Source: Vulcanisaeta distributa JCM 11213 (GTDB lineage: Archaea > Thermoproteota > Thermoprotei > Thermoproteales > Thermocladiaceae). From it: a DNA stretch of 64,000 bases. The translations under genes were made by a program, and so were the position numbers. The notes under the pieces were generated by a model, which saw only the letters and a list, made by a program, of their open reading frames with translations, made no database searches and had not been told where the DNA came from. Positions 1 through 64,000 of the stretch are shown here, piece after piece. How positions within the stretch are numbered: the stretch's first letter is position 1; each line of letters starts with the position of its first letter. The stretch lies in contig BBCS01000001.1 in NCBI GenBank assembly GCA_001316125.1, positions 660,736 to 724,735 on the forward strand. The letters are read 5' to 3'.

Positions 1-1178
1 GCCTGTTTAGTTTTATAGATAGTCTTTGTAACTATGATGCTGGTTATTATGCCTATGATTATGGCTATTAGTACCATGGTTATGAGAAATAGGTAATAAT
101 TATTACTAGTGGGTGTGGGGGGGTGAGTCTGAGTCCCGCCTAGTATGTAGGTGGGCCCTAATGAGGTTGGTGATGCCGAGGGTAGTGTGCCAATGATACG
201 ATTATTACTGGGGGGGCTTACGGCAATACAGGTGGGACAACAGGCATTGGCGCTAATCATTGGATGGCACATGACTATGTAAGTATGATTGGCCATGGCA
301 TGGCCTATTAATATTGGCCTTACGTATACCGTGATTACTACGGAATTATTGCTGGGTACCGTAACCCCTAAGCCGTAGATTATTAATAATTGAGGAATCG
401 CTTTATTGACCAATGACTCAATCACCGTGACATTAATTGGATATCCATATACATTAATTGTTCTATGTAATATGCCTACCACCATGGTATTGACGCCGAG
501 GTTTACCTCATCCTGATAATAGAGAATGTATGATACTAAGAACAAACCACTTAGATAAACCACGCCGTTATTGACGCGGGTGCATGAAGGTACAGGTAAA
601 AATGGCGTAGTATGTATGGTGTTAAGTATGTTTTTATATTGAGTTAATACCCACGGATTCACGGGCATTACAGGGACCACGCATAAGATACCACCCTGCA
701 CCAATTCGCCGTTTGGCGCCTTAATGAGCACCTTAGTGCTTGACATTGGGTATTTGTTGATGGGCTTCAGCGTGATGTTCTCCCTAACCCACAAATACAT
801 GTACGTCAAACCCCCCCTGCCCAGGATACTTGATAGTTCGTATCCACCCATCTCTGTATAGCCTAGGTTAACCGTGTTCGACCAAGTAATGGCTACTACG
901 TAGTAATTCATTGATTGATTCACCGGTGATGACAACCAGCTCGTTATTGGGAGACCCGAACTGGCGTTGTAGATTAGTACCCCCCCATCAATGCCGTTAT
1001 CCACCCCCCCAACCAAATGCACAATCAGCGTGTTGTTCCTTAGTAATGCCATTGGGCCATTCATAACCTGGTTACCTATGCCCAGCCCCCCCACGTCGTT
1101 GGGGGCATGCTCCATGAGCCGCATAGGCGGTTAATACTATTATTATTACCATTAATATCAATGCCCAGCCTTGCCCAT
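1..1178 (-). CDS. Secreted C-terminally membrane-anchored protein, 3' end outside window
   Basis: An uninterrupted reading frame of more than 370 codons runs from about 1124 to the left edge with no stop, so the C-terminus lies outside. The N-terminal signal peptide (VIIIVLTAYA) is in another frame; dropping one C from the C5 run at 1101-1105 joins the two parts. The ectodomain is rich in Asn, Tyr and Ser. It includes a His/Met/Cys-rich stretch (GHAMANHTYIVMCHPM, then CCPTC), a Pro/Thr linker and a C-terminal hydrophobic helix (LFLITMVLIAIIIGIITSI) followed by Lys-rich residues. The proposed start 1178 lies about 26 bases after a TATA-like AGAAAAAG box and also needs one restored T. I do not recognise the family; it resembles the other surface proteins here in composition and topology. 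Confidence 0.6.
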
Positions 1179-1194
1179 CAGACCATTTAATGCA

Positions 1195-1210
1195 GGGCTT
1201 TTTCTAGTCG
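1195..1210 (-). promoter_or_regulatory. TATA-like box of the secreted-protein promoter family
   Basis: On the minus strand the sequence CGACTAGAAAAAGCCC matches the core CCGAAGTTARAAAAAGYCC found before other secreted-protein genes at 3722, 17270 and 58015. It lies about 26 bases from the likely leaderless start at 1178, as expected for an archaeal BRE/TATA element. The match is weaker than in the other copies. Confidence 0.45.
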
Positions 1211-1271
1211 TTGGTACATGGGATGTTCCAATCACTAGAACTTTAAGTACTTAGGAATGGCATTACCGTGA

Positions 1272-1725
1272 ATGCGCAATGGCAATAAGGCTAACCTAAG
1301 CGAGACTGCGCTTAAGATATACCTACTGCTGATCAGGGAGGGCAAGCCCATGAGCATTAGAGAGATACGGAGGGCCCTGGGGGGGTTATCAAGCTCTGGG
1401 CAGGTTTACCATCACTTAGAGCGATTGAGGGGGGGCTCGGCCTAGTCATCAAGGACTCCGATGGTTATAGGGCTGTCAGGAGAAATGGGGTTGTTGAGGG
1501 CGCAATAATCCTTTGGTCCAGCGTGATTCCAAAGTCAGCCTTTTACTTGGGATTCTCGGTAACCCTGACGATAGCCTACGTAACCACCGTAATGCTGGGC
1601 CTAATGAGACTTGACCCAATGGCTTTAGTAGCCTAATCTCACTGCTTGCATTCTCGATAATTAAGTTCAGGGAACAATTCACCAAGCTGAGGAAATTGCT
1701 TCAAAGCGGTGACGAGGTGCTTTAA
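1272..1725 (+). CDS. Membrane-associated winged-helix transcriptional regulator, two frameshifts
   Basis: The N-terminal 55 residues form an archaeal winged-helix domain (KIYLLLIREGKPMSIREI, then GQVYHHLERL), followed by two hydrophobic helices (AFYLGFSVTLTIAYVTTV and SLISLLAFSII) and a charged tail. It is probably a DNA-binding protein tethered to the membrane. The frame breaks at the G7 run 1429-1435, where a G5 would read RLRGLGLV, and again near 1629, where one G is missing. A second G7 at 1379-1385 adds a Gly inside the HTH relative to the usual ALGLSS. The ATG at 1272 is the only good start. It lies divergent to the surface protein on its left and may regulate it. Family-level call only. 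Confidence 0.6.
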
Positions 1726-3760: not shown

Positions 3761-5532
3761 ATGGTTATGGGTTCGGGAATGAGGTGGTTGGTGGCTTTGT
3801 CGGTGATGGTTATTGCCGTCCTTGTACTCGCCCTATCCCTCCACGTTATTAATAGGCCTGGGCTTAAGGTCGCTAACCCACTCAACCAGGCAAGCCTCGG
3901 CATCACCAATGAACAAGCACCCGCCAGCATCAACACACCAATCTACGTGATCGGCCCTCAATCACTCACCCAGGAACTAATCAGCATCGGCATTAATCAA
4001 TCACTAATCAAGCCAGTATTGATCAACCAATTAACAAGCCTACCAAACAACAGCATAGTAATCATTGATTGGCCGGCGATAAAGCCGTTGCTTCACTTAA
4101 TTAATAGGACTGGGGGGGTTAATACCGCTAGTCCTGCCGTTAATACCTTAGTGAACCTGCTTAATCGCGGTGATTTGGTTCTGATAAGCGTCAATAGGAG
4201 TTCTTTACCCATTGCTGAGTTAGTCCTGTCGTACTCCCTCGCAAGGGCTGGCGGTGTTGAGGTGGGCGGTTTCACAAGCGTTAATTCATTCCCATACCCA
4301 GTTAGTCAGTACTTAATTGCATACCCAGTAATGTCAGTAACGACGAATTACACGTTAATTGCGGGCTTCGTTTATAGGCGTGATTATGTGACGGCATTGA
4401 TAGTGGGCCCATTGAGCCTGCATGACTTGCCCGGCTTAGTGACTGCATGGCTGATGGCGTCGGTAGATATGGCGTGGTCGTAATCCAGTCAAGTGATTTA
4501 GATCCAAGTTACGAGAACACTGACCCATGCTACGCAACTTGGTTAAGCCTATTAAATGCACCAAGTGGTTCAGAGGGCGTCTATGAGAATGGTGAGTACA
4601 TATTCATATGGGGGGGTGCCCAGGCGTTGGCTAGTGAAACAACGCAGACTATTACCATTAACCAGGACCTCGGTATTGCCGCAGTGCAGGATAACTATGG
4701 CGACACCTTCTACTACGACTCCTGTATTTTAATCCTCAACACCACGCAGTTCTACACGGATACGCCACCGAATATACCCATTGAGTTAATAGGCGATGTG
4801 GCTTACGTGATGACCCCCCCATCCGGTGGTAATTCACAGGTCATTAATAATCGGGTATTCCCTGGGCCTGGATTACTGTATAACCTGATCGGTGGTTTTG
4901 ACCTATACACTAGTTATGAGGATTACGTAAACGGCTTAACCAACTCATTTATCATAACCACGAGCGGTGGTTACTCACCAACGCCACAGTCATCGTCTGG
5001 TTCGTTATCCTTCGGGTTCGCCATAGGTCTTCCAGAGGAGGTTAGCGTATTTGTTGAGTATACATTACCATCGATAAGTGGGGGGGCAGGTGAGGGTATT
5101 AGCGTGGGTACGTATCCGTCAGCCTCAGCTTACGGGCTTGATGCGAACAATTATACCTGGAACTTCTACTACAGTTTTGTCGGTCCTCTGGATTTATTGA
5201 GTGATGTTGATTTTATCAATGGTTTCATTGTTGGTGGTCCGGGCATGGTCGGCGAATTAGCCATGCCTAGCTTCTCGCTTGGTAATACCTACTGGGTTTA
5301 CGTACCATTCAACGCCGAAGTTGAGACCTACTGTTGGAATGCTTGGGCTAACATGGGCTGGGAAATAGGCGTCACACCAGCGTCTTCAGGCGTGGTGGTG
5401 AGTCCGAACAATGCGGGCTTCTGGTTTTCAGGAGCACCAACGAATGCGCCAAGTGGGTCATGGGTTAATGGAGTAAACATTAACAACGCACCCCCCCTCT
5501 GCGGTTCAGTATCCTTAAGTGCGCCAGGTTGA
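3761..5532 (+). CDS. Large secreted surface protein, family B (copy 1)
   Basis: A signal anchor (WLVALSVMVIAVLVLALSL) is followed by about 560 extracytoplasmic residues rich in Asn, Tyr, Ser, Gly and Pro with many N-glycosylation sequons. It is the paralogue of the gene at 59702: IYVIGPQSLTQEL against VFVVGPQSLINNL, and SIVIIDW against SVVIIDW. Both then have a Tyr-rich region with DPCY or DPCQY. The frame changes once, inside the overlap 4447-4483. I chose the ATG at 3761 over the upstream TTG because it sits at leaderless distance from the TATA-like box. In-frame G7/C7 runs occur at 4112, 4610, 4814, 5080 and 5491. Function unknown; a cell-surface or filament subunit is an inference from composition. 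Confidence 0.65.
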
Positions 5533-5662
5533 TTGGCAAGGGCGGTGACATTAAAGGCAATTAAATAAGTGGTAATAGTTGAATATTCATACCACGTTAA
5601 TTTCATAGGGAGTTACTAAGTATGTTGCCTCGGCATTGTTCTTACCATTAAATCGAAACCAA

Positions 5663-6574
5663 TCATACGACACGGTTAACTACTTTTCTGGCTTTTCGCA
5701 TTAAGATTAATTCATTAAATGCGGTTGTGTTAAAGTAATTTAACGTATAATTCATTAATTGCCTATCTGCCACACTGATTACCTTGGCTATCTCATTTCC
5801 ATTTATTAACGTTATTAACGTGTCATGGATTACCTGTGTCGTTGCTATGCCGTTTGGTAGTAGGCAAATTATTTCTGTGGTATTCTCAAGTGTCGTATAG
5901 TTTGCCTTGGGTAATAATTCATTTATCATTATTGTCTTAGTCATGGTAGTTACATTGTAGCAGTAAGTGGTCTCTCCATGCCAACTTGATTCATTTATAT
6001 ACTTAATATGAATAACTTCTGCGTAACTTTCATTGTATTGGTTTAGGTATCCTGACCCATAACTCATATTTAATGCATAATTTCCTAAAAACTCATTAAA
6101 TGGTAAGTACGTGAGTAATAAGGCGCTTGCGTTCGGCTTTACCTGGGTTAGGCAGTCGATAATGGCGCCGTTTCGTCCACTATACATTACTATATAATTT
6201 GCCATGCACAATTCCTCGGGCGCACTTATCCAATAGGCAAATCCCTGAACAATTGGGGGGGTAGTGTATAGTGGGTTTGTGATATTTACCACATTAATTA
6301 TGCGTACAAATGCCCTACTTCCATTTATGAAGCCTATACTCATATAGTCAATTAAATGCTCATTAGTCTCATAATGCATATTGCTCCCTATCGTGACGTA
6401 AGTGGCATTTTCATAGTACATCGCAGTGAATGAACCGTTGATTAGTAATTCCCTGAGGTCATTAATGTAATTCATGGACGATGAGGATTGACCTCCTAAT
6501 CTTGATACAGCAATTATTATGGCAATTATAAGCACAATAATCACTAATGCTGTTACCACGAATATCCTTCTCAT
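5663..6574 (-). CDS. Secreted glycoprotein-like protein with N-terminal anchor
   Basis: The product has about 303 residues: MRRIFVVTALVIIVLIIAI forms the signal anchor, then an intact, unbroken ectodomain rich in Asn and Tyr with more than a dozen NxS/T sequons and several Cys residues. I chose the start at 6574 because the positive MRR directly precedes the helix; an in-frame start at 6628 would add a charged leader. It stands alone, convergent with the family B gene. I do not recognise the family. It is one of the few long genes here without a frameshift and has only one G7 tract (6255). Confidence 0.6.
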   Translation of the reverse strand: MRRIFVVTALVIIVLIIAIIIAVSRLGGQSSSSMNYINDLRELLINGSFTAMYYENATYVTIGSNMHYETNEHLIDYMSIGFINGSRAFVRIINVVNITNPLYTTPPIVQGFAYWISAPEELCMANYIVMYSGRNGAIIDCLTQVKPNASALLLTYLPFNEFLGNYALNMSYGSGYLNQYNESYAEVIHIKYINESSWHGETTYCYNVTTMTKTIMINELLPKANYTTLENTTEIICLLPNGIATTQVIHDTLITLINGNEIAKVISVADRQLMNYTLNYFNTTAFNELILMRKARKVVNRVV

Positions 6575-6991
6575 CGCCAGAAATACCTCACGCCGTTTTT
6601 TAAGCCTTATTACGCAACGTATCACCACATGAATGCTAGGGTAATCATAAGTGGATTGATCATGGGTTCACCGGCTCTAGCCTAAAGTAACTAATTACTT
6701 CATTAAATCACGCATCACGTTAGATACGCATTAGAATTTAAGATCACCACATAACTAAGCCGTTAGTAATGGCTTAATAAGCGTGACTTCATACGGATAT
6801 GAAGATGTAATACCCTAAATAAGTATCGTAGTAGCTTACGCACAACGATAATCAGTAATACATTACTAATACCCAGTCCACGGTTGATGTTTACATACCT
6901 ACCAATATAATTGTTAATGGATCAGAACCATTACCTACATTATATTTTATCAAGCAATTAATAATGATAATACTATTCGCAAATTATCTCC
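6575..6991. other. Intergenic region, no gene seen
   Basis: About 400 A/T-rich bases with stops in all frames. No repeat, RNA gene or promoter module recognised. Confidence 0.5.
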
Positions 6992-7730
6992 TTACCTAAC
7001 CTTTGTTATCGGTAGTTTCCCGTTTCTTAAGTCATTTATTAATTGAACGACCTCATTTACCGCGGCCTCCAGTATTGCCTTGCCCTTCTCCTGGCTTGCC
7101 CTCGATGGGTATCCCTGCACGGCCTTCGTATACTCCATCGCGTAGACCTCCTTCCCATACACCCTAAACCTCGCCTCAACCCACTCATCAGCCGAGCCAT
7201 CCCTAGGAATCCACTTAACCAGGTCTGGGTACGCTGCCCAGACCTCGCTTGTCTCGTCCTCAGCCGCATGGCCCTCCGGCGTCTCCAAAACCTTCTTCCT
7301 GGCCTCCTTTGCTAGGTCTATCCACCAGTTTATGATTATTATGACTAGGTTAGTCTCCTTTGCCACGTCCTTTGCCGCCATGTTTAGGGCGTCCGCATTG
7401 CCTCCATGCCCGTTAATGACGATTAGGTACCTAATGCCGTTCCTAGCCACTTCCCTGAATATGTCCCTGTAGAGCATGTATAGTGTCTCATTGCTTATGG
7501 ATATGGTGCCGGGGGAACTTGTCGAGCACGTACGTATTCCCATACCAAACAGTGGGCAGTAGGAGTACGTTGGTCCTCTTTGCGGCCTCCTCGGCTATGT
7601 AGGTGGCCATTAACGCATCCGTACCCAGTGGTAAGTGTGGTCCGTGGGCCTCGACAATCCCCGTCGGTAGTAGGGCCACTGTCTTATCGACCTTTTCAAA
7701 CTCAGGCCATGTAAGCTCCCACCAACGCAT
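6992..7730 (-). CDS. Creatininase-family amidohydrolase
   Basis: About 245 residues, the usual family length. The metal-binding pattern is clear: E27 and H29 in IVEAHGPHLPLGTD with D38, NGHGGN near residue 110, and an acidic stretch AEDETSEVW near 160. Members hydrolyse creatinine or formamido compounds (ArfB and MftE-like), usually as a metal-dependent hexamer in the cytosol; the substrate here cannot be deduced. The frame breaks at the C5 run in KFP (about 7510): a C4 gives KFPGTISISNETLYMLYRDI, the expected family sequence. The start at 7730 (MRWWELTWPEF) is the family-typical one. No functional neighbours; the MntA/HepT pair lies upstream. Confidence 0.8.
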
Positions 7731-7775
7731 TAACCATTGAATTGATAACGCCCTTAAATGCAATACCACCCAGGG

Positions 7776-8191
7776 TTAAGGATCCCAGTAATGCCTAGCC
7801 CTATCCCTAAGCGCCAGGGCTAGTTCGAGGACCCTCCTATAACTCCTCGACCTAAGTATTTCATCAACCACGTTAAGGTCTAGGCTGGCGTAGCCGTGAA
7901 CCACCACGTTCTTAAAGCCCACTAATGACTTGATTAGGGCCTCCTCCTCACTCGTCACCAAACCCATATCTCTTAACCTCCTGGCAATTCCTGAGTAGCC
8001 TCGGCAGTAACGCCCATGTTAGATAATAACCGTCGGCATAAGTCGATGAAGGCTTGCGCCTGAACCTGCAGTGCGTGTATTGACGCCAGTTGATCTCGCC
8101 AATTACTTAGATCATAACCACGGTCAACAAATTCATCGAGTCTCCTAGTCATATCCTCGATAATACTCAGCAATTTATTTAGGATCGCCAT
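7776..8191 (-). CDS. hepT: HepT-like HEPN toxin of a MntA/HepT pair, frameshifted
   Basis: About 138 residues, all-helical. The N-terminal half (LNKLLSIIEDMTRRLDEF) and C-terminal half (VTSEEEALIKSLVGFKN) join when one G is restored near 7983, giving ELARRLRDMG. The HEPN active-site motif reads FKNVVVHGY: the His and Tyr are present but the usual Arg of Rx4-6H is Lys. HepT proteins are RNases silenced by AMPylation from the partner nucleotidyltransferase, whose gene overlaps the start by 13 bases. The Lys may mean reduced or lost RNase activity, or a sequence error. Confidence 0.7.
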
Positions 8192-8606
8192 CTCATCACC
8201 AGGGCCTTACCCGCATTAGCCACCAGGTCCAACTTCCTGGCGTCAATAAGGAAGTCCTCACAAATCGAAGCCCTCCTATGCATCCTCAGCCATGCATCAT
8301 CACTGGCCATGTATAGTATTACACCATCACTAAAAACCTCATGAACCAGGTAACAATCAGCACTGTCGCTAATGGGCACTAGATCCACCCTATCCGTACC
8401 CAGGTAATCAAACAGGTCAAAGAGTAGCCGTGAGTGCTACCCAGGTCAAGGCCTCCCACGAACTCCACCGCGATATCAACATCCTCACCAAAACCCCCCC
8501 TCCTAACTATGGAACCAAAGAGAACCGCGTAGTAAATACCGTAGTTACCCCCCCATGGAAACATCCTCAATCTACCAATCACTGATTTATCAAGCATTAA
8601 GCCCAA
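8179..8606 (-). CDS. mntA: MntA-like minimal nucleotidyltransferase antitoxin, frameshifted
   Basis: About 140 residues. The NTase motif reads FGSIVRRGGFGEDVDIAVEF, with the two acidic residues of GSx(n)DxD; C7 runs at 8494 and 8548 lie in it, the former inserting one of the two Gly. The frame changes near 8440 and continues as LLFDLFDYLG, RVDLVPISDS and DGVILYMASDD, the family C-terminal half. MntA AMPylates a Tyr of HepT to neutralise it. The gene precedes and overlaps hepT, the usual order. Start 8606 or the internal ATG at 8597. Confidence 0.7.
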
Positions 8607-8706
8607 TCTAAGGATTACATACTTACTTACTTAAAGTATTTACACTTACCCATGTCCCAAGTGTTTGCAAAAACTTATTTCTTAGTGCATAATTACTCAT
8701 TAATCT

Positions 8707-10005
8707 ATGAAGGGCTATGTGGTGATCACAGCTATACGTGTGGCTAAACGTTCAATTCCACTATTAATTGTGGTGCTGGCATTAATGGTAGTCCCCAAGG
8801 CAGTATTCGCGCTTGGCGGTTGCTATATATTCACTGACGTTAATTTAACCTCAACGGGCTTCCCATACAGTGTCGTGGCGTACACGAGGTTTAACTCAAA
8901 CCATCTCATACGTAGTCTACCAATTACTGCCGGCCCACTTAATAGGACCATACCCATCACACTCAACGAGAGGGCCCCCAGGTCGATATATTATTTCTCA
9001 ACGAGACTATCAATTACGTATCGCCAAAGCCACCATTCTTCTATACAGCCGAATTAACAGCAACTTGGGATTACACGGTATACCCAATAAACATTACTAA
9101 CTACGTCGCATATGCCAATCAGGTCCCTGGCTTAACATAACAATGATTAACAACAGCTGCGAATTCCTACGTGCATACGTAATTCTACGCCCGGTACCTA
9201 CCATAATTAATGCAAGGCCGGACTGGGTATACTTCAGCGCATTTGTTGTAATGCTAGTATTACTAATTGGAATCCTGTTAATTATTACTTACCTACTCCT
9301 CATCAAGCCCATAGGAAAGCCCGCCAGTAATTCATCAGCGCCGCTCGGTGTTTATCGCTTTGGTCATGGCATGCTAATATTCTTGGTTATGAACATCATT
9401 AACATAATCATGACAATCGCATTCCTAATGTCATCAATACTCATGGGAAGCCCGCCGCCGGCCCTTGCACTGTCAAGTGGGGGGGCTTACCGTGATTAAT
9501 CACGTAACGACAAACCTACTATACGTCACGCTCCAAGGTCAATTAACCGTGGGGAATTTGGCTGGTATTGCGACGTACATGACTATGACGTTAATAATCA
9601 TTAATATGGTGTATGCGATGTTCATAGCAGCTATGATCTTCCTCAAGGATGGGTTCCTTAAATTAGGGTTTATTAATGATAATGTCCAAATCGGCTACTA
9701 CGGTTCATTAGTGAACATATTCGGAATAATACTCCTAATGATTGCCTACTCAGCAATGATCATCCTGCTGAGCCGTTCACCATATACGCCATCGAGCATG
9801 TAACCCCCATCAATAACGCCGGGCATAATCTCGACAGTTGTGGGATTAATAACGGCCGTGATCCCCGGGCCTGATGGGCATCATAATACTGTTCGTGGGC
9901 TTCATAATGACTCTCGTAGCCACGTATAGGTTATTATCCACGTACAGCCCAACCATTAGGTACCTCGGCGTGGCAATGGCCCTATTAATAATAGGCATGT
10001 TTTAA
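8707..10005 (+). CDS. Multispanning membrane protein with secreted N-terminal domain, frameshifted
   Basis: A signal sequence (PLLIVVLALMVVPKAVFA, then LGGC) leads into an Asn-rich ectodomain (NYVSPKPPFFYTAELTA, TVYPINITNY), then about seven membrane helices (VYFSAFVVMLVLLIGILLII, LIFLVMNIINIIMTIAFL, GIATYMTMTLIIINMVY, IFGIILLMIAYSAMIIL, GIIILFVGFIMTLVAT, YLGVAMALLIIGMF). Frame changes near 9005, 9125, the G7 at 9479, and near 9800-9860 are needed. The organisation, one outer domain plus a helix bundle, resembles the gene at 26004-27411; both recall archaeal DUF973-type membrane proteins, without proof. The stop is at 10003-10005. Confidence 0.5.
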
Positions 10006-10010
10006 ACCTA

Positions 10011-10427
10011 GTGAGTGTAACGGGCGTAAACCTAGGCCTGATCATACACGCGCCAACCATTGCCTACCTATATTACTTAACAACACTTATGTTGGGCAGG
10101 GTAGCCGACCTAAACGACGTAGGCGCGTTAATACTTAATGCGGAGCATGAGCTAGGCATGGCAAGGACCAGCACATATCCAATTGATAATTTAAGGAGGG
10201 CATTCAATTACGTAGTTAAGGCATTGGCGATTAGGGAGGGATTACCTGAGGTTCAGGGTGCTGTGAGGACCGGTCATTGGACTAATCAGTTAATTACGAG
10301 CGCCGTAATGCGGTTATCAGATAAACTACTGACAGTGAAGGAGCTATGGCTAAGCCTAAACCAGGAATCATTAACTAACATTGATGAGACGATAGGTAAG
10401 GTTAGGGAATTACTCAGGGCGTTTTAA
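10011..10427 (+). CDS. Small helical protein, HEPN- or PaREP1-like
   Basis: 138 residues from a GTG at 10011, five bases after the preceding stop, so probably co-transcribed. An N-terminal hydrophobic stretch is followed by amphipathic helices (LNDVGALILNAEHELGMA, NLRRAFNYVVKALAIREG, TVKELWLSLNQESL). The pattern of two helix pairs recalls HEPN/PaREP1 proteins, but no Rx4-6H motif is visible. Unbroken frame. Function unknown. Confidence 0.5.
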   Translation: MSVTGVNLGLIIHAPTIAYLYYLTTLMLGRVADLNDVGALILNAEHELGMARTSTYPIDNLRRAFNYVVKALAIREGLPEVQGAVRTGHWTNQLITSAVMRLSDKLLTVKELWLSLNQESLTNIDETIGKVRELLRAF

Positions 10428-10454
10428 TTAAATAATGAGCTCACTCAGTAGGGC

Positions 10455-12253
10455 TCAGCCCTGGCACACAGTAGAGCCAGGCCATGGGTATAAATAAGGC
10501 AGGTAATTCAAGTAGTAACCACTACCATTAATTATAATGCCTGCAGGCCAGTAATACTCATTACCACCGGATGCGGTGATGGCTGGCGAACCCACAAAAG
10601 TAGTATAGAACTGCCACGACGTATTGGGATTAGTATATATGTTTACGATGTAATTCTGGTATATGGTGGCTGCAGATGATACGAAGTAATTAAGTATGTA
10701 CGATACGGCAAAGCCAATGAGCGGCCCAATAATAGGTGGTACTTCATCTAGAACCGTCTCAGCAATAATCTCAGCAATAACGCCACCAACATCAGCACCC
10801 CCAGGCGGGAATGCCCGGGTTGTACGTCATTAATACCTTCTGTAAACCATATTCTACGACATTGCTTGATAAATTACTAGGGCTGGGTGCATTACTACAG
10901 GCTTGGACATACGTTGGCGAGGATTCAGCAGATGGGTTATACGAAATATATTGGCCGTCAAGCACCGAGAACGCTTCACCGGCTAATCCCTGGCTTATTA
11001 ATACGGCTAAGGTGTTCGTTACCGAACCATTACCGATATCAAGATATGGATAGATTGTAAGGACGCCAGAATTATATGATAGGCTACTTAAGCTTAGCAC
11101 CATCGTGCCATTAGCGATGTAAGTAGGTGTACAGGAACCACCTTGAAATAAACAGTAGTAATACGTAAGTAATACGTAACCGCGGCAACATACCCAATAG
11201 GCCCAATAAACACGGTGCCAGAGCCTGGCACGTAATAAACCTGCTGTCCATACACGCATGCAGAATTAAGGGAATTCCCATGCGTAATAGCTAATTGTTG
11301 CTCATAAGCTTGGCACATTGGTTCATATAGATACATACTTACGGATTGTGAAAAGGTAATTGTTGGTTCGTTAGATGTGGTTGACATAATGTAGTAACCT
11401 GAGGTGTTGTATATGGCGTATGAGGCATAGAATCCACTACCTGCTTGTGCTTCTCCGTTATGTAATGCAACATTTATATTTATAACACCGTTACTCCATA
11501 CACCCATGCCCCCCCAACTCACGAAGAATAGCGGTATTGGTCCCTCAAACTCATAGCAACTCTCTAATTGCCAGCCAGTTGAGCCAAGGCAGGTACGTAT
11601 GGTAGGCTTGAAGGTGATTGTGGAACGCTATTCCCCCCCATGCATGAACCCACGTAGGTATACCCATATGGGTCTGTTGTATTTATCTTGGTATTGGTTG
11701 TTTGCATGGTTATAGACTTCGTTAGATTTCTCGGTATTGGTAGTGGCTTTACCGTGGTTAAGTTTACTGATGCGGTTATGGCTATGTGTTCCTTGCTTAT
11801 TATCCAACCTGGGTCGTAAGGTATGGCCAGGATCATGAACCTCACGGTATGTGTCTCATTGGATGTGTACGTGATGAATGCGAGTAGTGATGGCCATAGC
11901 CCAGCCACATTCCATGCACTGGCTACCTCCATCATTAGTGGGTTCGCTAGGTTTATGGTCACTGCGCCCACACCGTAGTAGTAGCCTATAGTGTAGATCT
12001 TCGTTGGCGTGAATGCGAATAGACTCACGGTGATTGGCGCTGGCGTGTTATTTAGGTATGTGCGTATTACGAGGGTTGGCGTAGTGATGGTGCTTATGTT
12101 GTAATAGTCTATTTGTGAAGCCTTGGCTGTGAGAGTCATGAACGGTCTTGACTGTGCCTGGGATTGGGCTAGGGCTATGAGGGCTATGGACAGTGCCGCT
12201 ATGGCAATTATTGCCAGGGTGATTATGCGTAGTGTATTTACTCGACTTGGCAT
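10455..12253 (-). CDS. Large secreted surface protein, family A (copy 1), frameshifted
   Basis: Signal peptide (ITLAIIAIAALSIALIALA) then about 570 residues rich in Ser, Thr, Asn, Tyr. The N-terminal beta-rich domain (ITVSLFAFTPTKIYTIGYY, then MEVASAWNVAG) corresponds to KIASEWVAKG in the gene at 19720 and FAKSWRDSL in the gene at 58061. Later parts, FVSWGGMGVWSNGVININ, YIANGTMVLSLSSLSYNS, VLDEVPPIIGPLIGFAV and SGGNEYYWPAGIIINGSG, lie in three frames; joints are near 11560, 11130 and 10805. It ends at the TGA 10455-10457. C7 runs occur at 11509 and 11633. It is alone among the family A genes in lacking the shared promoter module. Function unknown, probably cell surface. Confidence 0.55.
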
Positions 12254-12279
12254 AATAATCGCTCTAATTACGGAGATTT

Positions 12280-50939: not shown

Positions 50940-51200
50940 ATGTTAGAGGTTAGGGTCAGGGTTTCTAAAAAGAATACTATTTACATACCTAAGGCGATTT
51001 CTGAGGCTGTGGGCATTTCTGAGGGTGATTATGTTGTTTTGAGGGTTGATGGTAATAGGATAATTATCGAGCGTGTTGAGGACCCGTTTGAATATGCTTT
51101 GAAGGTTAAAAAGTTCGCTGAGGTAACCTTTGAGGAGTTTGAGAGGGAATCTGAGGAGATGCAGAATGAGTATTGGAGTGAGGCCTCGGATACTTCTTGA
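50940..51200 (+). CDS. vapB: VapB-type AbrB antitoxin
   Basis: 86 residues, unbroken. LEVRVRVSKKNTIYIPKAIS and ISEGDYVVLRVDGNRIIIER form an AbrB/SpoVT DNA-binding domain; the acidic C-terminal tail (FEEFERESEEMQNEYW) would wrap around the toxin. Overlaps the PIN toxin gene by 23 bases. Such antitoxins repress their own operon. Confidence 0.85.
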   Translation: MLEVRVRVSKKNTIYIPKAISEAVGISEGDYVVLRVDGNRIIIERVEDPFEYALKVKKFAEVTFEEFERESEEMQNEYWSEASDTS

Positions 51201-51623: not shown

Positions 51624-51646
51624 ATCATTCGTGGGAATTCCCGCGT

Positions 51647-52027: not shown

Positions 52028-52070
52028 ATACCGCCCTAATTCATACCATGGCAGACCTAAAAATAAAGCT

Positions 52071-53156
52071 TCAGTAATTGGGAATGCCCAGTCTCATGGC
52101 TGCCTCCCTATACATTGGGTCTAGAAATTCGTAATTCTCAATGATACTCAGTCTCTCCAGGGTCTTTATCACATTATTCAACGATGTCGGTGATACTGTC
52201 GTGCCCTCGAAATCCTCTACACATCTGACCACCTTGGACCACGTATTACCACCACTGGCGATGCACCTAAGCACCAGCGCCGTCCTCCTGGCATTAACGG
52301 TTGAGTAACTAGCCTTAACCCTTATGAGCTTCTCAAGCTCATTCAGCGCCTCCCTAATTGCGGCATCCCTAATCATCGATAAATCCCTAACACCCCCCCT
52401 AATGTAGGCATTGGCAACATAAACAAGCCAACCAGGTATGCCGTCAAACACATCCGCAATGGTCTCAATAACGTCTGTGGAAACCTCGATACCCAACTCC
52501 TTAAATCCTCTCCTCAGGAAGTCAATTGATTCATCACGGGTGAACCTACCAATCCTCACCTCATGGAAGTACCTGCCGAACAATGGTGAATTTGGATCTT
52601 CAATGCCCATGAATTCATAGAGCAACCCAACCTCAGAGCCGCTGAGTATGAATGTTACATTCCTATCGAAGTCATACGCATGAGCCAGGGCATTAAGAAC
52701 CTCACCCGACAACGGACCCCCCCTCAGCCTCTGCGCCTCATCAAACACCACCACAACCCTCCTCTCATTAAGCCTATCAAAAAGCTCCGCCAGACTAACC
52801 TGCTCCCTACCCCCCCTCCACCTAATCTCGATGGCATTACCCATGATCGAGATGCCCCCCCTGATCTTCCTTAGAACATCGATTAGCTTGTCAAGGCTTG
52901 ATGATAGGGCATTGGATATTAATCGATATAGGTCAGACCTACCATAATTATCCCTCAACGACCTACAATCAATTAATACATAGGGTATGTCGGTCTCATT
53001 CAACGCCACGTTAATTACGGAAGTCTTACCAATACGCCTAATGCCGGTAACCACAATCATGGGTCCATTAATGTTTTTCAGTATATCATTCAGCTCCTCA
53101 TTCCTATCATACAAGTCACCCCCCCTACTCACCTTTGGTCTCTCATCAAATAGCAT
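52071..53156 (-). CDS. Archaeal AAA ATPase (Arch_ATPase family), copy 1
   Basis: 361 residues, unbroken. Walker A VTGIRRIGKTSVIN, Walker B VVVVFDEAQRL, sensor FILSGSEVGLL, then a helical domain and a C-terminal winged helix (TLERLSIIENYEFLDPMYRE). These STAND-like ATPases are expanded in archaea, of unknown role. Paralogue of the next gene. The run at 53120 gives VSRGGDLYDR against VNRKDLYDR in the paralogue, so one residue is extra; further C7 runs at 52393, 52697, 52810 and 52855. A 15-base direct repeat lies right before its ATG. Confidence 0.85.
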   Translation of the reverse strand: MLFDERPKVSRGGDLYDRNEELNDILKNINGPMIVVTGIRRIGKTSVINVALNETDIPYVLIDCRSLRDNYGRSDLYRLISNALSSSLDKLIDVLRKIRGGISIMGNAIEIRWRGGREQVSLAELFDRLNERRVVVVFDEAQRLRGGPLSGEVLNALAHAYDFDRNVTFILSGSEVGLLYEFMGIEDPNSPLFGRYFHEVRIGRFTRDESIDFLRRGFKELGIEVSTDVIETIADVFDGIPGWLVYVANAYIRGGVRDLSMIRDAAIREALNELEKLIRVKASYSTVNARRTALVLRCIASGGNTWSKVVRCVEDFEGTTVSPTSLNNVIKTLERLSIIENYEFLDPMYREAAMRLGIPNY

Positions 53157-53158
53157 GG

Positions 53159-53195
53159 CTACAACCCCCCCTCTAGTTAACTACAACCCCCCCTC
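53159..53195 (-). promoter_or_regulatory. Duplicated operator-like repeat before ATPase copy 1
   Basis: CTACAACCCCCCCTC occurs at 53159-53173 and again, identical, at 53181-53195, a 22-base (two helical turns) period, directly before the start codon at 53156. The spacing suggests cooperative binding of a dimeric repressor, perhaps autoregulation. If the C7 runs are really C4, the repeat is CTACAACCCCTC. Confidence 0.6.
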
Positions 53196-53213
53196 CAGTC
53201 CTAAAAACCCTTC

Positions 53214-54337
53214 TCAACCAATGCCAGCCTCTACGACGGCCTTGGCAACGACTGGGTCGGGTATGACGTAATTATCGCCTACCCTGCTTAAATAACCATA
53301 CTTAACGAGATTCCTCATAAGCCTATTGAACACAGTGTCGGAGATCTCGCCGGTTTTAACCTCAACGTACCTCCTAATCTCACTCCACGTATTTAACCCA
53401 TGAGCCACCGCATTAAGTATGGCTAAGTACCTGGCCCTCGAAGGCCTAATAACCTCATCAAGTTCACTAAGCACAAGCTTAACGCCATCACTGAATACCC
53501 TATCCAAAGCCTCTCTATGGCTCAACCCCCTCAACGCCCCTTAAGTAACCATACAGCGTTAACCAACCGACAATACCATCCAACCGCTCATAAACCTCCT
53601 CCAACTCACCCTCACTAACCTCAATACCTAATTCAGCGAAGCCCCTTTTAAGGAAATCGAGACCGGCATCCTTACTAAACCTATCAACGTATATCTCCTT
53701 GATATACCTACCATAGAGGGGGGGCGCCTGTGGATCGTCAATCCTCAGGAAATCCCTCAAAACACCAACTTCACTCCCAGTCACTATGAATGTGATGTTG
53801 CCCAGGTCATCATAAGCCCATGCCAATACGCCATCATATTTAACGTTCGAAAACCTCATGTATTGAGCCTCATCAAACACTAGTATGAACCTCGTGGAAT
53901 TACGCTCACACCACCCATCAACTACATTAAGTAATTCAATTAAGTTTACCCTTGACTTCCTGGATAACTTAACCTCAATACCACCTGCGCCAACCCTAAC
54001 CCAGCCTATACCCCCTCAACGCATCCCTAAAGCTCTCCCAAAGTCTCTCACCCATTCCCATGAACCCCCCCTTAAAACCATTGATGATGTACTTAACCAG
54101 ATTGCTGGCGTTGACATTGCCCTCAATGAAGTATACTTGTCTCACATCAACAAGTACGTATGGATAGGAGAGATCGCTCAGGAAGGCCTTGACCAAGCTA
54201 GTCTTACCAATCCTCCTAATACCATAAATCGCAATGAGCTTATTACCCCTGTGCACACCCTCCCTTAATTCATTGAGTTCTCTATCCCTATCATAAAGGT
54301 CCTTTCTATTTACCTTAGGCTCAAGGCTAAATAGCAT
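53214..54337 (-). CDS. Archaeal AAA ATPase (Arch_ATPase family), copy 2, frameshifted
   Basis: About 373 residues in three pieces. Walker A IYGIRRIGKTSLVK, Walker B FILVFDEAQYM, sensor FIVTGSEVGVL, YGRYIKEIYVDRFS and a C-terminal winged helix (LMRNLVKYGYLSRVGDNYVI). Joints near 54000-53890 and 53525. The run at 53708 gives QAPPLYGRY against NSPLFGRY in copy 1, one residue extra. Tandem duplicate of the gene downstream; its own promoter region has a different duplicated inverted repeat. Confidence 0.8.
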
Positions 54338-54339
54338 GA

Positions 54340-54379
54340 CTAACTCCCCCCCGTTAGTTACTAACCCCCCCCGGGTTAG
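54340..54379 (-). promoter_or_regulatory. Duplicated inverted-repeat operator before ATPase copy 2
   Basis: CTAACTCCCCCCCGTTAG (54340-54357) and CTAACCCCCCCCGGGTTAG (54361-54379) are two copies of an imperfect inverted repeat with CTAAC/GTTAG arms, centred about 21 bases apart and ending three bases from the ATG at 54337. This is a typical arrangement for a repressor that blocks transcription start, perhaps autoregulation. Confidence 0.6.
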
Positions 54380-54406
54380 TTATTAAGCTTTAAGGATTAC
54401 ATTGGA

Positions 54407-55165
54407 CTACTCCTGACCCTGACCAAGCACCTCACTGACTATCCTCTCTATCGACCTAATCAACCTCCTATCCGCACCGCCACCACCCAGGGAGTTAATG
54501 AAGGAGTTCAGAACCTCAAGGTCCACACCATACCTACCGTAATAGCTCGGCAGATAGTGGAGGACTATGTTCTCGTCATACCTAAGCACCTGCAGGACCT
54601 TTAAAAGCTTCAGGAAATCTATTGAGCCCTCGAATATGGGCAACCCAAAGGAACCACCCCTCTTATTGCTAAAGTAAATCGCCTTGATATAGCCACTCAA
54701 CTCAACAAACCTCCTAACGAACTCCCTCAAGCCCCCCCTCTCCCTAGCCACATGAAGCGCCAGGCCGAGCCTATGCGGCGAAACCTCACTGGCAAGCTCG
54801 GTAACCTCACCAGGCTCCTCAGGAAGTCCCCCCCAACACCGAACTCCCAAATCACCCTAACACCGTACATCGAAGCCTCATCAAGCAACTCCGCCAGTGT
54901 ATTAACATCATTAATACCGGGCCTAGCCACCATAGAATCCACATTAAGGTAATCGAGCAATGCCATGAACCTCTCAGCATCACCCCCCCTCCTCCTTAAG
55001 TAACCAACCCTGACCTGCCCAATCCTAAGCCCAAGATCCTCCAGCTCCACCGCGAGGGCTGGCAGGAACTTATCAACGTCTGGGTAACCCCCTAATATCA
55101 AGCTCCGCCTGCGTATTCAATTTGGGTAGGTCCCTAATGGGCTTAACACTAATGAGTAACTCCAC
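54407..55165 (-). CDS. TIM-barrel-like protein (xylose-isomerase-like fold), frameshifted
   Basis: About 250 residues. VVELLISVKPIRDLPKLNTQ (first frame), LPALAVELEDLGLRIGQVRV, GINDVNTLAELLDEASMYG, VIWEFG, HRLGLALHVA and IKAIYFSNKRGG, DENIVLHYLP suggest a sugar isomerase/AP-endonuclease-like barrel; the metal-binding residues are not certain. Joints near 55095 and 54830. GTG start 55165. C7 runs at 54732, 54828 and 54983 in Gly-rich turns. Unknown function; it follows the divergent gene at 55258. Confidence 0.5.
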
Positions 55166-55257
55166 AACATCGATAATGCTGGGTTAATTAATAAAACTAT
55201 CGATAATGAGCAAGGAACCAAGCTTTTTAAGCCCGATAAGTAAACTATAAATCCACC

Positions 55258-55638
55258 ATGAGCGAGAACATCGATGAGATCGAGAGAAGGAGGATAATGA
55301 TGAAGATGATGATGGAAATAATTAATAAGACCCAGCAGAAAACCAGCACCAAGCGTGAATTAACCCGTGAGGAGGTCATTCAATTAATTAGGCAGATAAC
55401 GAGGGGGGAGAGGGCTGGTGAGATAATAGACAATGCATTGCAGTTATATGGAGATACAGCTGTTCAGGTGTTTAGGCAATTAGCCGAACTCTACTTAAGC
55501 GGTAGGCTGGGTGGGCTTCAGGATTACGAACTCTACCAAGTACTCGAGAGGTTGGGGGGGCTACATGTACCGTTAAGGACCAGGATAAGGATTGTGAGGC
55601 ACGGTAGGGAGGAGAGTATTGGATCGTCAAGTGAATAG
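55258..55638 (+). CDS. Conserved-looking helical protein of unknown function
   Basis: 126 residues, unbroken. A charged Met-rich helix (RRRIMMKMMMEIINKTQQ), then ELTREEVIQLIRQITRGER, LYLSGRLGGLQDYELYQVLE and a basic tail PLRTRIRIVRHGR. It could bind nucleic acid. I do not recognise the family; PDCD5 was considered and does not fit. G7 at 55554 gives LGGLH. Confidence 0.5.
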   Translation: MSENIDEIERRRIMMKMMMEIINKTQQKTSTKRELTREEVIQLIRQITRGERAGEIIDNALQLYGDTAVQVFRQLAELYLSGRLGGLQDYELYQVLERLGGLHVPLRTRIRIVRHGREESIGSSSE

Positions 55639-55661
55639 CAGTCACGGTGATCAGCCACATC

Positions 55662-56260
55662 TCAGGAATTACCATGCTTAGGCTCCATACGAAGTCTTAG
55701 TATTATATACGCTACTATCACGATTACCGCCACAACAGCAATAACGTATAAGTACTTATCAATTAATCCTATAATTAACGACCATTGAGTCGCAAATGCA
55801 TAACCAATATACACGAGGATTGTGTCCCAGATTAAATGCCCGAGGAATGTAACGATGATGAAGCCCATTATTCTCATACCAGCCAGGCCCGCTGGGAATG
55901 ATATGAGCGCCCTAAAGCCAGGCAGAAACCTGAAGCCAAATACAGCCGCCATACCATACTTATTAAACCACCTACTCAATGAATCAAGTCTCCTCTTGTT
56001 AAGGCCGAATAATCCACCATACCTGAGAAGGAATGGTAAGCCAGGTAATAGGCTATGTAATAATCAATTAATGAACCAACCAGGCTACCAAGCGTGCCAA
56101 CCAACACGCCAAATACAGGGTTTATGAAACCCAGCGATGCGTAGTAACCAACCAGGGGCATAACAACCTCACTGGGTATGGGCAGCGACATACCCTCAAG
56201 AACCATTAATACAAATACTGAAGCGTAACCATATAATCCCTTAAACACGTACTCAAGCAT
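55662..56260 (-). CDS. DedA-family membrane protein, frameshifted
   Basis: About 200 residues. YASVFVLMVLEGMSLPIPSE and VLVGTLGSLVGSLIDYYIAY in the first half; WFNKYGMAAVFGFRFLPGFR and ISFPAGLAGM in the second, the DedA/SNARE-associated signature with the amphipathic re-entrant loop. The joint is near 56008 (LRYGGLFGLNKRRLDSLS). Members are lipid scramblases or transporters for polyprenyl-phosphate carriers. Start ATG 56260. Confidence 0.85.
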
Positions 56261-56372
56261 CGTCAGTAGGACCTAGCGCGTCTTAAAAGGATTAATATGA
56301 AGAAATACCTAAGGAGAGGGGGTTGCAGTGAGATTAATAACCTTACTTTACTTACCACAACATGACTAAATC

Positions 56373-56960
56373 ATGAGAATAGGTGCAGTAGTACTGGCTG
56401 CAGGTGAGGGTAGGAGGTTTGGCGGTAATAAGTTGCTGGTTAGGGTTGGTGGTGAGCCAGTTATAGTGAGGGTTTTAAGGGCGTTGGGTGGGCTTGATAG
56501 GGTGGTCGTTGTTGGGGGGGCTTATGCCAGCGAGTTAATGCCCTACCTGGTTAATGAGGTCGTTATTTACAACCCGTACTATAGGGATGGAATGAGCACG
56601 TCGATAAGGCTTGGGCTTCGCTTCTTTCAGGACTACGATGCAGTGCTCATAGTACTGGCTGACATGCCACTCATAACCAATGAAACACTGTCGAGAATAA
56701 TAAATGCCTACCGCAATGGATGCAGCGCAGTTGTGCCGGTGCACAACGGCGTGAGGGGGGGTAATCCCGTGTTAATTCATAGGACATTATTCCCAGAGTT
56801 AATGAGGTTAAGCGGTGATGTCGGTGCAAGGGAGATATTAAGGGGGGGGAGAGATGACGTATGTACCGTGGAGTGCGGTCCCGAGATCCTAATCGATGTA
56901 GACACGGTGAACGACTTAGCCAAGGTCCTTAGCATTGCCAATACCAATCGCCAACAATAG
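56373..56960 (+). CDS. MobA/MocA-like nucleotidyltransferase
   Basis: 195 residues, unbroken. Nucleotide loop VVLAAGEGRRFGGNKLL, metal Asp in LIVLADMPLIT, GNPVL and DVDTVNDL at the end: the molybdopterin cytidylyl/guanylyltransferase (MobA/MocA) family. It activates molybdenum cofactor or a related sugar-phosphate substrate. G7/G8 runs at 56514, 56755 (RGGNPVL; family RGNPVL) and 56832. Its 3' end overlaps a minus-strand membrane gene by 45 bases. Confidence 0.82.
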   Translation: MRIGAVVLAAGEGRRFGGNKLLVRVGGEPVIVRVLRALGGLDRVVVVGGAYASELMPYLVNEVVIYNPYYRDGMSTSIRLGLRFFQDYDAVLIVLADMPLITNETLSRIINAYRNGCSAVVPVHNGVRGGNPVLIHRTLFPELMRLSGDVGAREILRGGRDDVCTVECGPEILIDVDTVNDLAKVLSIANTNRQQ

Positions 56961-57400
56961 ACTCCCAATGAACGTGATAATGGGCATCGCGTTAAGCACG
57001 GCACCAACCCTAATCAGCAGGTTCCGTTGCGTGGTTCTCCAGAGGAATATCGAGATTGAAACATCACCTAGGAAGCGATTCCCATGCCCACTATAATGAT
57101 TAAGTAAGGTCGCGGTATGAAATGAACCATTAATAGTAGTGACGAACCAAGCATTAACAGTAATGCACCAACAGACCCAATACTCAATGGTCTGGAATAC
57201 CCATTGAAGCCCAGGTACATGGTCACCGACGATACCGTGTACGTCAATACGATTAATAAAATGAGAATAGGGCTGAGGTACCTTGGGTATAGGATAATCA
57301 TGAAGTATAGGAACTCGGCTATGAACTCCAGAATAAGCCCAAACCTAATAAGTCCGCGGTTAAGCATAACAGTAATTACTCGCGCTGGGTTAAAAAGCAT
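56916..57400 (-). CDS. Membrane protein of unknown function, frameshifted
   Basis: About 160 residues. Helices GLILEFIAEFLYFMIIL, SPILILLIVLTYTVSSVT, IGSVGALLLMLGSSLLLMV, YLIIIVGMGI and, in the next frame, VLNAMPIITFIGSLLLAIGI ending at a TAA at 56916. The joint is near 57078 (SLGDVSISIFLW). No family recognised. Confidence 0.5.
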
Positions 57401-57473
57401 AGGGAATAGAAAAAGTCAAAGAGAAACGATAACATGAAGGCTTATATTTTAATTTACAAAAATAATATTTGGT

Positions 57474-62224: not shown

Positions 62225-62437
62225 AAGGCATCAACTGCAAAACCCCCCCTTTAAAGAAGTGCCCCCCCGGAAACAAGCCAGGTGAAGAAGTCAGAGTTAG
62301 CTGAGGAAGTGATGACCCATTCATGAACAGATCACCCCCCCAGGAAGACTAGGTTACCATAGTAAATAAGCAAGATACTTAAACCAACGCACAGGCACAA
62401 CCTTAATTTACCAAACCCACACCCCCCCCAAAATAAC

Positions 62438-63085
62438 GTGATTAACAACGTGAAATACGTAGGCGGAAACATAGTGATCACGCTAAGCCAGGAAGCAATA
62501 GCCTTAGCAAGCACCGTAGACGGAGGGCTAAGGAACGGCATTAAATACATAATACATCACCAAGTCCCCAAGGACTTCAATAACGACCCAATCAAGGAAG
62601 TAATAAGGGTACACAGGGAATTATCGATAAACAGCGACGAAGCAATAACCTTCCTAACAGCCACAGAACTACCAAGAAACCACATAACACATAGGGAGGT
62701 AATCAACGACGTGGAGATTGAGGTATCAATAACCATGGGACTGACAAATCCTTATCGGATAAATAAGGACAGTATAGAGGCTCGGGGGGGCTTCTGCGAA
62801 TCAACAGTGAACATGGCGATAATCATGAATAAACCATTGACGGTGCAGGCAATGATAGACGCCATAACGTTGAGCGCGCAGGTGAAGGCGTTAACACTCG
62901 CCGAACTAACTAACGGCAAGATTCACGGAACAACCTCAGACGCGGTGGCGATAATAACGCCGATTAACGGTAATAAAGAACCATACGCAGGACCAGCAAC
63001 GAGCATAGGCAAGGCCATAGCCCACGCCGTGCACGAGGCATTAATAAGGGCGTACAAAACCTACACGGCGCATGAAAATCAGTAA
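62438..63085 (+). CDS. cbiZ: Adenosylcobinamide amidohydrolase
   Basis: 215 residues, unbroken. ALASTVDGGLRNGIKYIIHH near the N-terminus, EVSITMGLTNPYRI, then NMAIIMNKPLTVQAMIDAIT and KIHGTTSDAVAIITP, the CbiZ pattern. Archaea use CbiZ to cut salvaged cobinamides to cobyric acid, feeding corrinoid synthesis. G7 at 62784 (RGGFC). ATG/GTG start 62438. No other cobalamin gene is in the window. Confidence 0.82.
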   Translation: MINNVKYVGGNIVITLSQEAIALASTVDGGLRNGIKYIIHHQVPKDFNNDPIKEVIRVHRELSINSDEAITFLTATELPRNHITHREVINDVEIEVSITMGLTNPYRINKDSIEARGGFCESTVNMAIIMNKPLTVQAMIDAITLSAQVKALTLAELTNGKIHGTTSDAVAIITPINGNKEPYAGPATSIGKAIAHAVHEALIRAYKTYTAHENQ

Positions 63086-63290
63086 GGAATAAACAAACGA
63101 AAAGGCGATGAGCAACCCCCCCTGGAGTTTTCGGGCCACCCCCCCGATTATGCCCTCCCTAACGCACTTCATGAGTATTAAAAAGCCCCCCCTTAGAGCT
63201 ATATTTATAGCGCCAATAACGTCCCTATCACCCTCAAAGCCGCAGTAACCACACGTCACCCTACCCCTAACCCTACCAGTTATATGTTAT
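63041..63290 (-). pseudogene. IS605-type OrfB (TnpB) C-terminal remnant
   Basis: RVTCGYCGFEGDRDVIGAIN is the second half of the TnpB zinc ribbon with the last catalytic Asp (DRDVxGAxNI). Upstream, RVRG-type residues are still readable up to about 63290, but the N-terminal 300 residues and the second CxxC pair are absent and no terminal hairpins were found. The tail is hydrophobic junk overlapping cbiZ. A fragment of a mobile element. Confidence 0.6.
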
Positions 63291-63308
63291 GAAAAACTAA
63301 CTTTTATT

Positions 63309-64000
63309 TTATCTCATAGTAAGTGCCTGGTATAAAGGTTTGGGCATGGTTATTTTAACATTAATTATTTTATAAATGTAAAGTATTATTGAATGACTAA
63401 ACGATGAACTTGCTAAGTAGGGAGGTTTAGGCCCGTGGGCTTGGGCGGGGGGGCAGTTTAGGTTTTTCATTGCCCTGAGTATTCTTTGCGTCCTCTTTTT
63501 ATTTCCCTCGTTTAACGCCTCGTCAAGCATCTTCCTTAATACCTCGCAGGTCCTGGCAGTAAGCTCTGGGTGATTTTTTATTTCGCCATGGTTTATGTAG
63601 ACCTCAAACCTATCACTGCACTCCCTTAACTTGGCATTGTAGCCAGCACTCCTTAGCCTCTCCTGGACTGCCAATGCGTCCTCAAGCTCTTACGCCTAAT
63701 CCTCAACACAGCACAGCCTTTGTTGTTCACATGCACGGCCATCGATATACCATCAATAACCTTAACCATTGAACTACCGCGTGGCTTAACCCTCATGTTA
63801 GCCAGCTCGATTAAATCCCTCAACTTCTCAGCATCCGGCAGTAAGCTCAAGTCCTCGATCAATGCCTTGATCCTAGGCTCACCAAGCCACCTCTGGGCCA
63901 GTGCAACGGCCTTTGAGGAGTAAATAGTGATTACTTTCTTGTGCTTCATATCACGCTTCTTGAATCCCATGCCCCCCCTCATCCTATCAATGATGCCCTT
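63309..64000 (-). CDS. PaREP2b-family protein, C-terminal part, 5' end outside window, frameshifted
   Basis: Pieces SSKAVALAQRWLGEPRIKAL, DLSLLPDAEKLRDLIELANM, KPRGSSMVKVIDGISMAVHV, LAVQERLRSAGYNAKLRECS-like text and EALNEGNKKRTQRILRAM match the C-terminal half of PaREP2b proteins of Thermoproteales. The joint is near 63665. The N-terminus lies beyond the right edge. Runs at 63447 (CPPAQ) and 63972. PaREP2 genes are repeated and linked to genome rearrangement; function unknown. Confidence 0.65.

What the first reader, a model, noticed from the sequence alone, without database searches (positions are those of the whole stretch)
1..64000. G/C homopolymers pile up at exactly seven bases
By eye I count about 150 runs of six or more G or C: roughly 130 of length 7, about 14 of length 8, about 9 of length 6, none of 9 or more. 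At the roughly 45 percent G+C I estimate, chance gives only a few 7-runs and several times more 6-runs than 7-runs. The runs occur in all three codon phases (RGG, GGV, xGG) and on both strands, in coding and non-coding DNA, so the nucleotide run and not a peptide is the common factor. Either a systematic sequencing/consensus effect (for example mis-sized runs caused by modified cytosines) or a real genome-wide expansion process.
Basis: seen in the sequence. Interest (0 to 1): 0.85.

Follow-up and report, generated by a model that had tools for sequence, protein, structure and literature searches.

The report
Sequencing error inflating G/C runs
The striking pile-up of seven-base G or C runs is very likely a sequencing error in a draft genome of the hot-spring archaeon Vulcanisaeta: real runs of four were written as seven, and most genes were left out of frame.

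Summary
The count is right: 155 G/C runs of six or more, of which 131 are exactly seven, 14 eight, 10 six, none longer. A Markov model of the nearest genome gives 2.35 seven-runs per 64 kb, at most 7 in 200 simulations. It is not biology. The window is a Vulcanisaeta strain 93-96% identical over about 45 of 64 kb to the complete V. distributa type-strain genome (G001). With identical flanks, real G/C 4-runs are lengthened in 55 of 81 cases, 42 to exactly seven; 5-runs became six to eight, while 3-runs and A/T runs are nearly unchanged. Runs are re-sized, not created. Frame-breaking expansions are as common in ORFs as outside (28 of 99 against 7 of 22, p=0.80), and 18 of 50 genes stay in one frame, against 13 of 14 in complete V. 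souniana. Flanking bases do not matter, which argues against a methylated motif. Three of 405 genomes counted show the same peak, all poorly complete. The likely source is a culture-collection draft series, at least one member of which is Ion Torrent PGM; platform and processing step are inferred.

The parts
1..64000 (.). 131 G/C runs of exactly 7, 14 of 8, 10 of 6, spread over the whole window; the artefact is window-wide
   Evidence: all coordinates listed; expectation
5343..42397 (.). Longest collinear stretch with G001 (three blocks of 93-95% identity) in which real 4-runs are compared with window 7-runs
49320..57453 (.). Second collinear stretch with G001 (95-96%) showing the same re-sizing
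52071..53156 (-). AAA ATPase ORF with five +3 expansions relative to G001; extra glycines at GISIMG, GREQ and GPLS that the Vulcanisaeta-type relatives P0001, P0002 and P0003 lack
36050..37123 (+). S-adenosylhomocysteine hydrolase, cut short by a frame break (the G001 ORF runs on to 37371); extra glycines at the runs 36787-36793 and 36971-36977, where the best-scoring solved homologue has none
12467..12474 (-). Example of an 8-run whose G001 counterpart is a 5-run
52393..52399 (-). Example of a 7-run whose G001 counterpart is a 4-base segment with one substitution: a 4-run not present in G001 is also written as seven
   Evidence: row; count of such cases
15066..15066 (.). Example of the accompanying single-base loss in a short G/C run

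Best explanation
The peak at seven is a technical artefact of the assembly, not a property of the genome. A G or C run that is really four or more bases long is usually written about three bases too long (4 to 7, 5 to 8, no run above 8), while runs of one to three and A/T runs are read nearly correctly. Shown here: the re-sizing against a complete relative, its restriction to G/C runs of four or more, its indifference to coding frame and flanking sequence, and the broken frames. Inferred: the DNA is from one of the culture-collection (JCM) drafts of Vulcanisaeta distributa, and the error arose in reads or in their homopolymer calibration on a flow-based platform (Ion Torrent PGM), where G/C signals at and above four bases were mapped to wrong lengths. 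My odds: artefact 0.97; flow-based platform 0.65; a calibration step with a threshold at four as the exact cause 0.4.
For:: with six identical bases on both sides, G001 G/C 4-runs read in the window as 3:4, 4:22, 5:9, 6:3, 7:42, 8:1 (81 pure; 7 more carried a substitution); 5-runs as 6-8 (6 of 6 pure); 3-runs unchanged 583 of 595; A/T 4-runs unchanged 66 of 67; runs of four or more number 37.6 per 10 kb in the window and 32.2 in G001, so runs are re-sized, not created; 28 of 99 expansions in ORFs and 7 of 22 outside are not multiples of three (Fisher p=0.80), so there is no sign of selection on frame; 18 of 50 G001 orthologues lie in one frame in the window, against 13 of 14 in G018, whose single contig has the length (2,432,148) of the complete hybrid Illumina/Nanopore V. 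souniana genome (PMC9872577, whole text); six window 7-runs and one 8-run match a G001 segment with one substitution. G012, G015 and G016 have 7958, 3857 and 4803 isolated seven-runs and completeness 47, 67 and 67%; the other 402 of 405 genomes have at most 340; 209 four-runs against 396 seven-runs, no flanking position clearly differs (lowest uncorrected p 0.023 of 12); for strain JCM 14467 an assembly with a 1,353,555-bp contig gives an intact 441-aa protein while the draft G019 splits the same gene in three, two pieces at 99.7 and 100% identity and the first at 94%, so a draft of this set carries frame errors. PMC9872577 states that the draft BBBK was made on an Ion Torrent PGM; PMC5069417 (passages) lists V. 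distributa JCM 11217 as BBBJ, the neighbouring prefix. G015 and G016 encode proteins named Vulcanisaeta distributa at 99.7-100%.
Against: Raw reads and the window's own record were not available, so strain and platform are inferred. Ordinary Ion Torrent error at longer runs is mostly under-calling (PMC3623719, passages); +3 over-calls are not typical. The JCM 14467 and JCM 16159 drafts (G019, G020) lack the peak, so not every draft is affected. No peak-bearing strain was found in a second assembly, so the direct same-strain test of a seven-run is missing. 22 of 81 4-runs are not lengthened and nothing tested explains which. A protein from the 'lgn' source (P0004) shares three extra glycines with an NCBI protein (P0005); if that source is a separate assembly of reads, as I recall but did not check, the error is in reads and not in one submitter's assembler.
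Confidence: 0.93

Rival explanations
1. A real genome-wide expansion process lengthens G/C runs of four to seven in these strains (polymerase slippage or a dedicated system).
For: The peak is sharp and occurs in four assemblies of one family: the window, G012, G015, G016.
Against: Only 18 of 50 genes remain in one frame; frame-breaking expansions are as common inside as outside ORFs; 4-runs absent from G001 are at seven too; extra glycines fall within conserved enzyme sequence; the four Vulcanisaeta genomes of 99% completeness have 2-5 seven-runs each; single-base losses, 19 of the 25 cleanest in G/C runs, accompany it (counted by eye).
Confidence: 0.01
2. The error is technical but is caused by modified bases: altered C in C tracts misread by a nanopore or similar caller.
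For: The affected assemblies found are all of one family, and none of the other 402 genomes counted shows the peak; only G/C runs are lengthened.
Against: No clear dependence on flanking bases, unlike the motif dependence expected of a methyltransferase; 10 of 12 genomes of the genus, four of them 99% complete, lack the peak.
Confidence: 0.05
3. A variant of the best explanation: the error arose in assembly or polishing software rather than in the reads.
For: The step (3 nearly untouched, 4 to 7, none above 8) looks like a software rule.
Against: P0004 and P0005, very similar proteins from two sources, share extra glycines, which is unlikely if one submitter's assembler alone made them; the provenance of P0004 was not checked.
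Confidence: 0.3

Closest known systems
Homopolymer length errors of flow-based sequencing (Ion Torrent PGM, 454)
   Same: Errors in homopolymer length, frame breaks in most genes, both strands, no motif; short G/C runs also lose single bases
   Different: The usual error is under-calling that grows with run length (PMC3623719, passages); here G/C runs of four or more are over-called by about three, none above eight
Draft genomes of JCM Vulcanisaeta strains (BBBJ, BBBK, BBCT, BBDM, BBDN, BBDO, named in PMC5069417 and PMC9872577)
   Same: G015 and G016 encode proteins deposited as Vulcanisaeta distributa and show the same peak; G019 (JCM 14467) and G020 (JCM 16159) show broken frames
   Different: G019 and G020 lack the peak at seven; which accession the window, G015 or G016 is was not established
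Phase-variable G/C tracts of bacteria (recalled)
   Same: Long G or C runs that change reading frame
   Different: Those are few per genome, at contingency loci and variable in length (recalled); here most 4-runs across 52 kb compared are affected

Membership tests
Sequencing/assembly homopolymer artefact | Run length differs from orthologous sites in an independently sequenced relative with identical flanks | tested here: met
   55 of 81 G/C 4-runs longer in the window, 42 at exactly seven
Sequencing/assembly homopolymer artefact | No respect for reading frame | tested here: met
   28 of 99 in ORFs against 7 of 22 outside, p=0.80; 18 of 50 genes in one frame
Sequencing/assembly homopolymer artefact | Independent reads of the same strain contradict it | not testable with these tools
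   no second assembly of a peak-bearing strain was identified; own assembly not held. For JCM 14467, which lacks the peak, another assembly has an intact gene where the draft is broken
Ion Torrent PGM error | Data produced on that platform | tested here: inconclusive
   PMC9872577 states it for BBBK; for the window, G015 and G016 it is inferred from protein names and neighbouring accession prefixes; G012 has no name
Ion Torrent PGM error | Under-calling dominates at longer runs | tested here: not met
   G/C runs of four or more are over-called; short G/C runs do show losses (2 to 1: 12, 3 to 2: 10)
DNA-modification miscall | Errors depend on a recognition motif | tested here: not met
   12 flanking positions, lowest uncorrected p 0.023, none below 0.05 after correction for 12 tests

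The most novel reading that the evidence does not exclude
The DNA of these archaeal strains carries a tract-specific, motif-free alteration of G/C runs of four or more (a modification or bound product) that makes an otherwise normal sequencer over-size them; the artefact would then report an undescribed feature of the DNA.
Probability: 0.03. Interest if true: 0.65.

Novelty: not a real feature. Interest (0 to 1): 0.12.

Why it matters
As biology, nothing. As a warning, it matters that at least three further public assemblies (G012, G015, G016) hold thousands of doubtful runs each, that their estimated completeness is 47-67%, plausibly because genes are broken, and that proteins with the extra glycines (P0005, P0006) sit in a public protein collection.

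Tried and rejected
Real expansion: rejected on frame, 4-runs absent from G001, and relatives. Methylation motif: no clear flank signal. A DNA-level frameshift control in relatives is unreliable: at 12-22% substitution the aligner places gaps freely and even complete genomes score 1.9 (G018) and 9.7 (G017) frame-breaking indels per kb of ORF, against 3.3 for the window, and only 6 of 13 (G018) and 0 of 5 (G017) ORFs come out free of them; I therefore rely on the protein-level test. The DNA-level count for the window itself (7 of 53 ORFs free) shares that weakness in part. ORFs of G001 are mechanical (longest non-overlapping), not annotated genes. Literature: no paper describing the peak turned up in the ten searches, which cover only the open PMC library and were mostly aimed at Vulcanisaeta or Ion Torrent. 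That the Ion Torrent base caller applies a homopolymer recalibration from length four upwards is recalled; searches did not confirm it and I opened none of the papers listed there. No Rfam match at gathering scores and no tRNA in the window; window 1-25000 has no near match in the plasmid collection. G012 could not be named (P0133 has no name). An earlier count said that P0090 (JCM 16161) shares the extra glycine; its sequence does not bear that out, and I make no use of it.

Rows dropped: one search counts only runs with six identical flanking bases on each side and sets aside runs with a substitution (7 of 88 4-runs). The substitution count takes only seven- and eight-runs with at least 7 of 8 flank matches on each side (83) and leaves 24 of them unresolved. 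About 11.5 of 64 kb had no usable G001 match and were not compared. Histograms of G012-G020 come from 20-40 kb pieces, not whole genomes; the seven-run counts are whole-genome.

Full report
OBSERVATION. The window has 155 G/C runs of six or more: 10 of six, 131 of seven (74 C, 57 G), 14 of eight, none longer; there are only 60 of four and 25 of five. A second-order Markov model trained on 37.6 kb of the nearest genome predicts 237, 52, 11.5, 2.35 and 0.6 for lengths four to eight per 64 kb; the most seven-runs in 200 simulations was 7. The model errs high: those 37.6 kb themselves hold 28.2 fours and 4.0 fives per 10 kb and nothing longer. A/T runs decline with length.

WHERE THE WINDOW COMES FROM. 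Its own assembly is not held. Nearest is G001, one contig of 2,374,137 bp, the length given for the V. distributa type-strain (IC-017) genome (PMC3035369, start of abstract in the listing). Blocks at 93-96% cover about 45 of 64 kb, two more align at 78% and 89%, and about 11.5 kb was not aligned. Substitutions in ORFs fall mostly at third codon positions (1723 of 2850), so the sequence between runs looks genuine. A protein identical to one of the window's (P0121) is listed on a contig of 724,735 bp.

WHAT THE RUNS ARE. Of 101 aligned seven-runs, 75 have a longest run of four in G001. With six identical bases on each side, 81 pure G001 4-runs read in the window as 3:4, 4:22, 5:9, 6:3, 7:42, 8:1; six 5-runs as 6, 7, 7, 8, 8, 8; two 6-runs as 7 and 8. 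Runs of three are unchanged in 583 of 595, A/T runs of four in 66 of 67 and of five in 22 of 22. Runs of four or more number 37.6 per 10 kb against 32.2 in G001: they have been re-sized, not created. Six seven-runs and one eight-run correspond to a G001 segment differing by one substitution, so 4- and 5-runs not present in G001 are lengthened as well, which a slow mutational process would not readily give.

REAL OR NOT. Expansions that are not multiples of three make up 28 of 99 within ORFs and 7 of 22 outside (Fisher p=0.80): no sign that selection has acted on frame. One- or two-base losses are common too; of the 119 seen, 60 have at most three other mismatches nearby, and of the 25 with none, 19 are in G/C runs (last count by eye). 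At DNA level 7 of 53 G001 ORFs are free of frame-breaking indels. In the safer protein-level test 18 of 50 orthologues lie in one frame, against 13 of 14 in G018 and 5 of 6 in G017. The DNA-level control on the relatives failed as a control, because gaps are placed freely at their divergence. Extra glycines fall within conserved sequence: two in S-adenosylhomocysteine hydrolase against the best-scoring solved homologue 7r39, where a third single residue is also extra, and several in an AAA ATPase. A cultured or environmental archaeon with two thirds of its genes out of frame is not credible.

OTHER ASSEMBLIES. Among 405 distinct genomes counted for isolated seven-runs (the 398 were drawn from a larger phylum, the 25 and 81 are the family and class as held), three stand out: G012 4190+3768, G015 2031+1826, G016 2522+2281; the highest of the rest is 340 in total. 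The three are 47%, 67% and 67% complete at 1.9-2.4 Mb and share the window's histogram in the 40 kb read of each: few fours, sevens at 21-24 per 10 kb. G015 encodes P0006 (100%) and P0195 (99.7%), and G016 encodes P0196 (99.7%), all named Vulcanisaeta distributa. G019 matches JCM 14467 and G020 JCM 16159 by protein and contig length; both lack the peak but are 81% and 63% complete with broken frames (6 of 10 and 8 of 13 in one frame). For JCM 14467 another assembly (contig 1,353,555) encodes an intact 441-aa vWA protein, while G019 splits the gene in three: frame breaks of that draft are contradicted by a second assembly of the same strain. A like test for a peak-bearing strain was not found.

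HOW IT LIKELY AROSE. The draft BBBK of V. souniana was made on an Ion Torrent PGM (PMC9872577, whole text). PMC5069417 (passages) lists further drafts BBBJ, BBCT, BBDM, BBDN and BBDO, two of them V. distributa. I infer that the window, G015 and G016 belong to this series; G012 is unnamed. Errors concentrated in homopolymer lengths fit a flow-based platform. The threshold at four, the jump of three and the absence of runs above eight suggest a wrong calibration of long G and C signals. Against this, PGM error at longer runs is ordinarily under-calling (PMC3623719, passages), and G019 and G020 lack the peak. Whether a run stays at four does not clearly depend on flanking bases: 209 four-runs and 396 seven-runs from the window and six 20-kb pieces of G012, G015 and G016, lowest uncorrected p 0.023 among 12 positions. 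That argues against a methylation motif.

VERDICT. A confirmed, strong signal with a mundane cause: a G/C homopolymer sizing error in a draft Vulcanisaeta assembly. The boldest reading left is that some motif-free feature of these organisms' G/C tracts provokes the error; I give it 0.03. Otherwise the interest lies in data quality.

Noticed in passing
window 18772-19635 (+): One 287-aa ORF carries a HepT-like RNase domain and a MNT-type nucleotidyltransferase domain together; G001 has a 286-aa ORF at the same place, so the fusion is not just a frame error here.
   Followed up: partly
window 1-5342, 42398-43840, 48940-49319, 57454-61099, 63278-64000: Stretches outside the G001 alignment blocks although most of the rest is 93-96% identical: probably strain-specific or strongly diverged DNA (short weaker matches to G001 exist in parts).
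   Followed up: no
L072 (G019, JCM 14467 draft): A vWA-domain gene is broken in three in this draft but intact in another assembly of the same strain: a ready control for errors of the draft series.
   Followed up: yes
   Followed up: partly
P0005, P0006: Proteins with the extra glycines are listed entries of a protein collection clustered at 90% identity, and no full-length G001 orthologue is among the 120 listed; artefact sequences may be standing for intact relatives.
   Followed up: no
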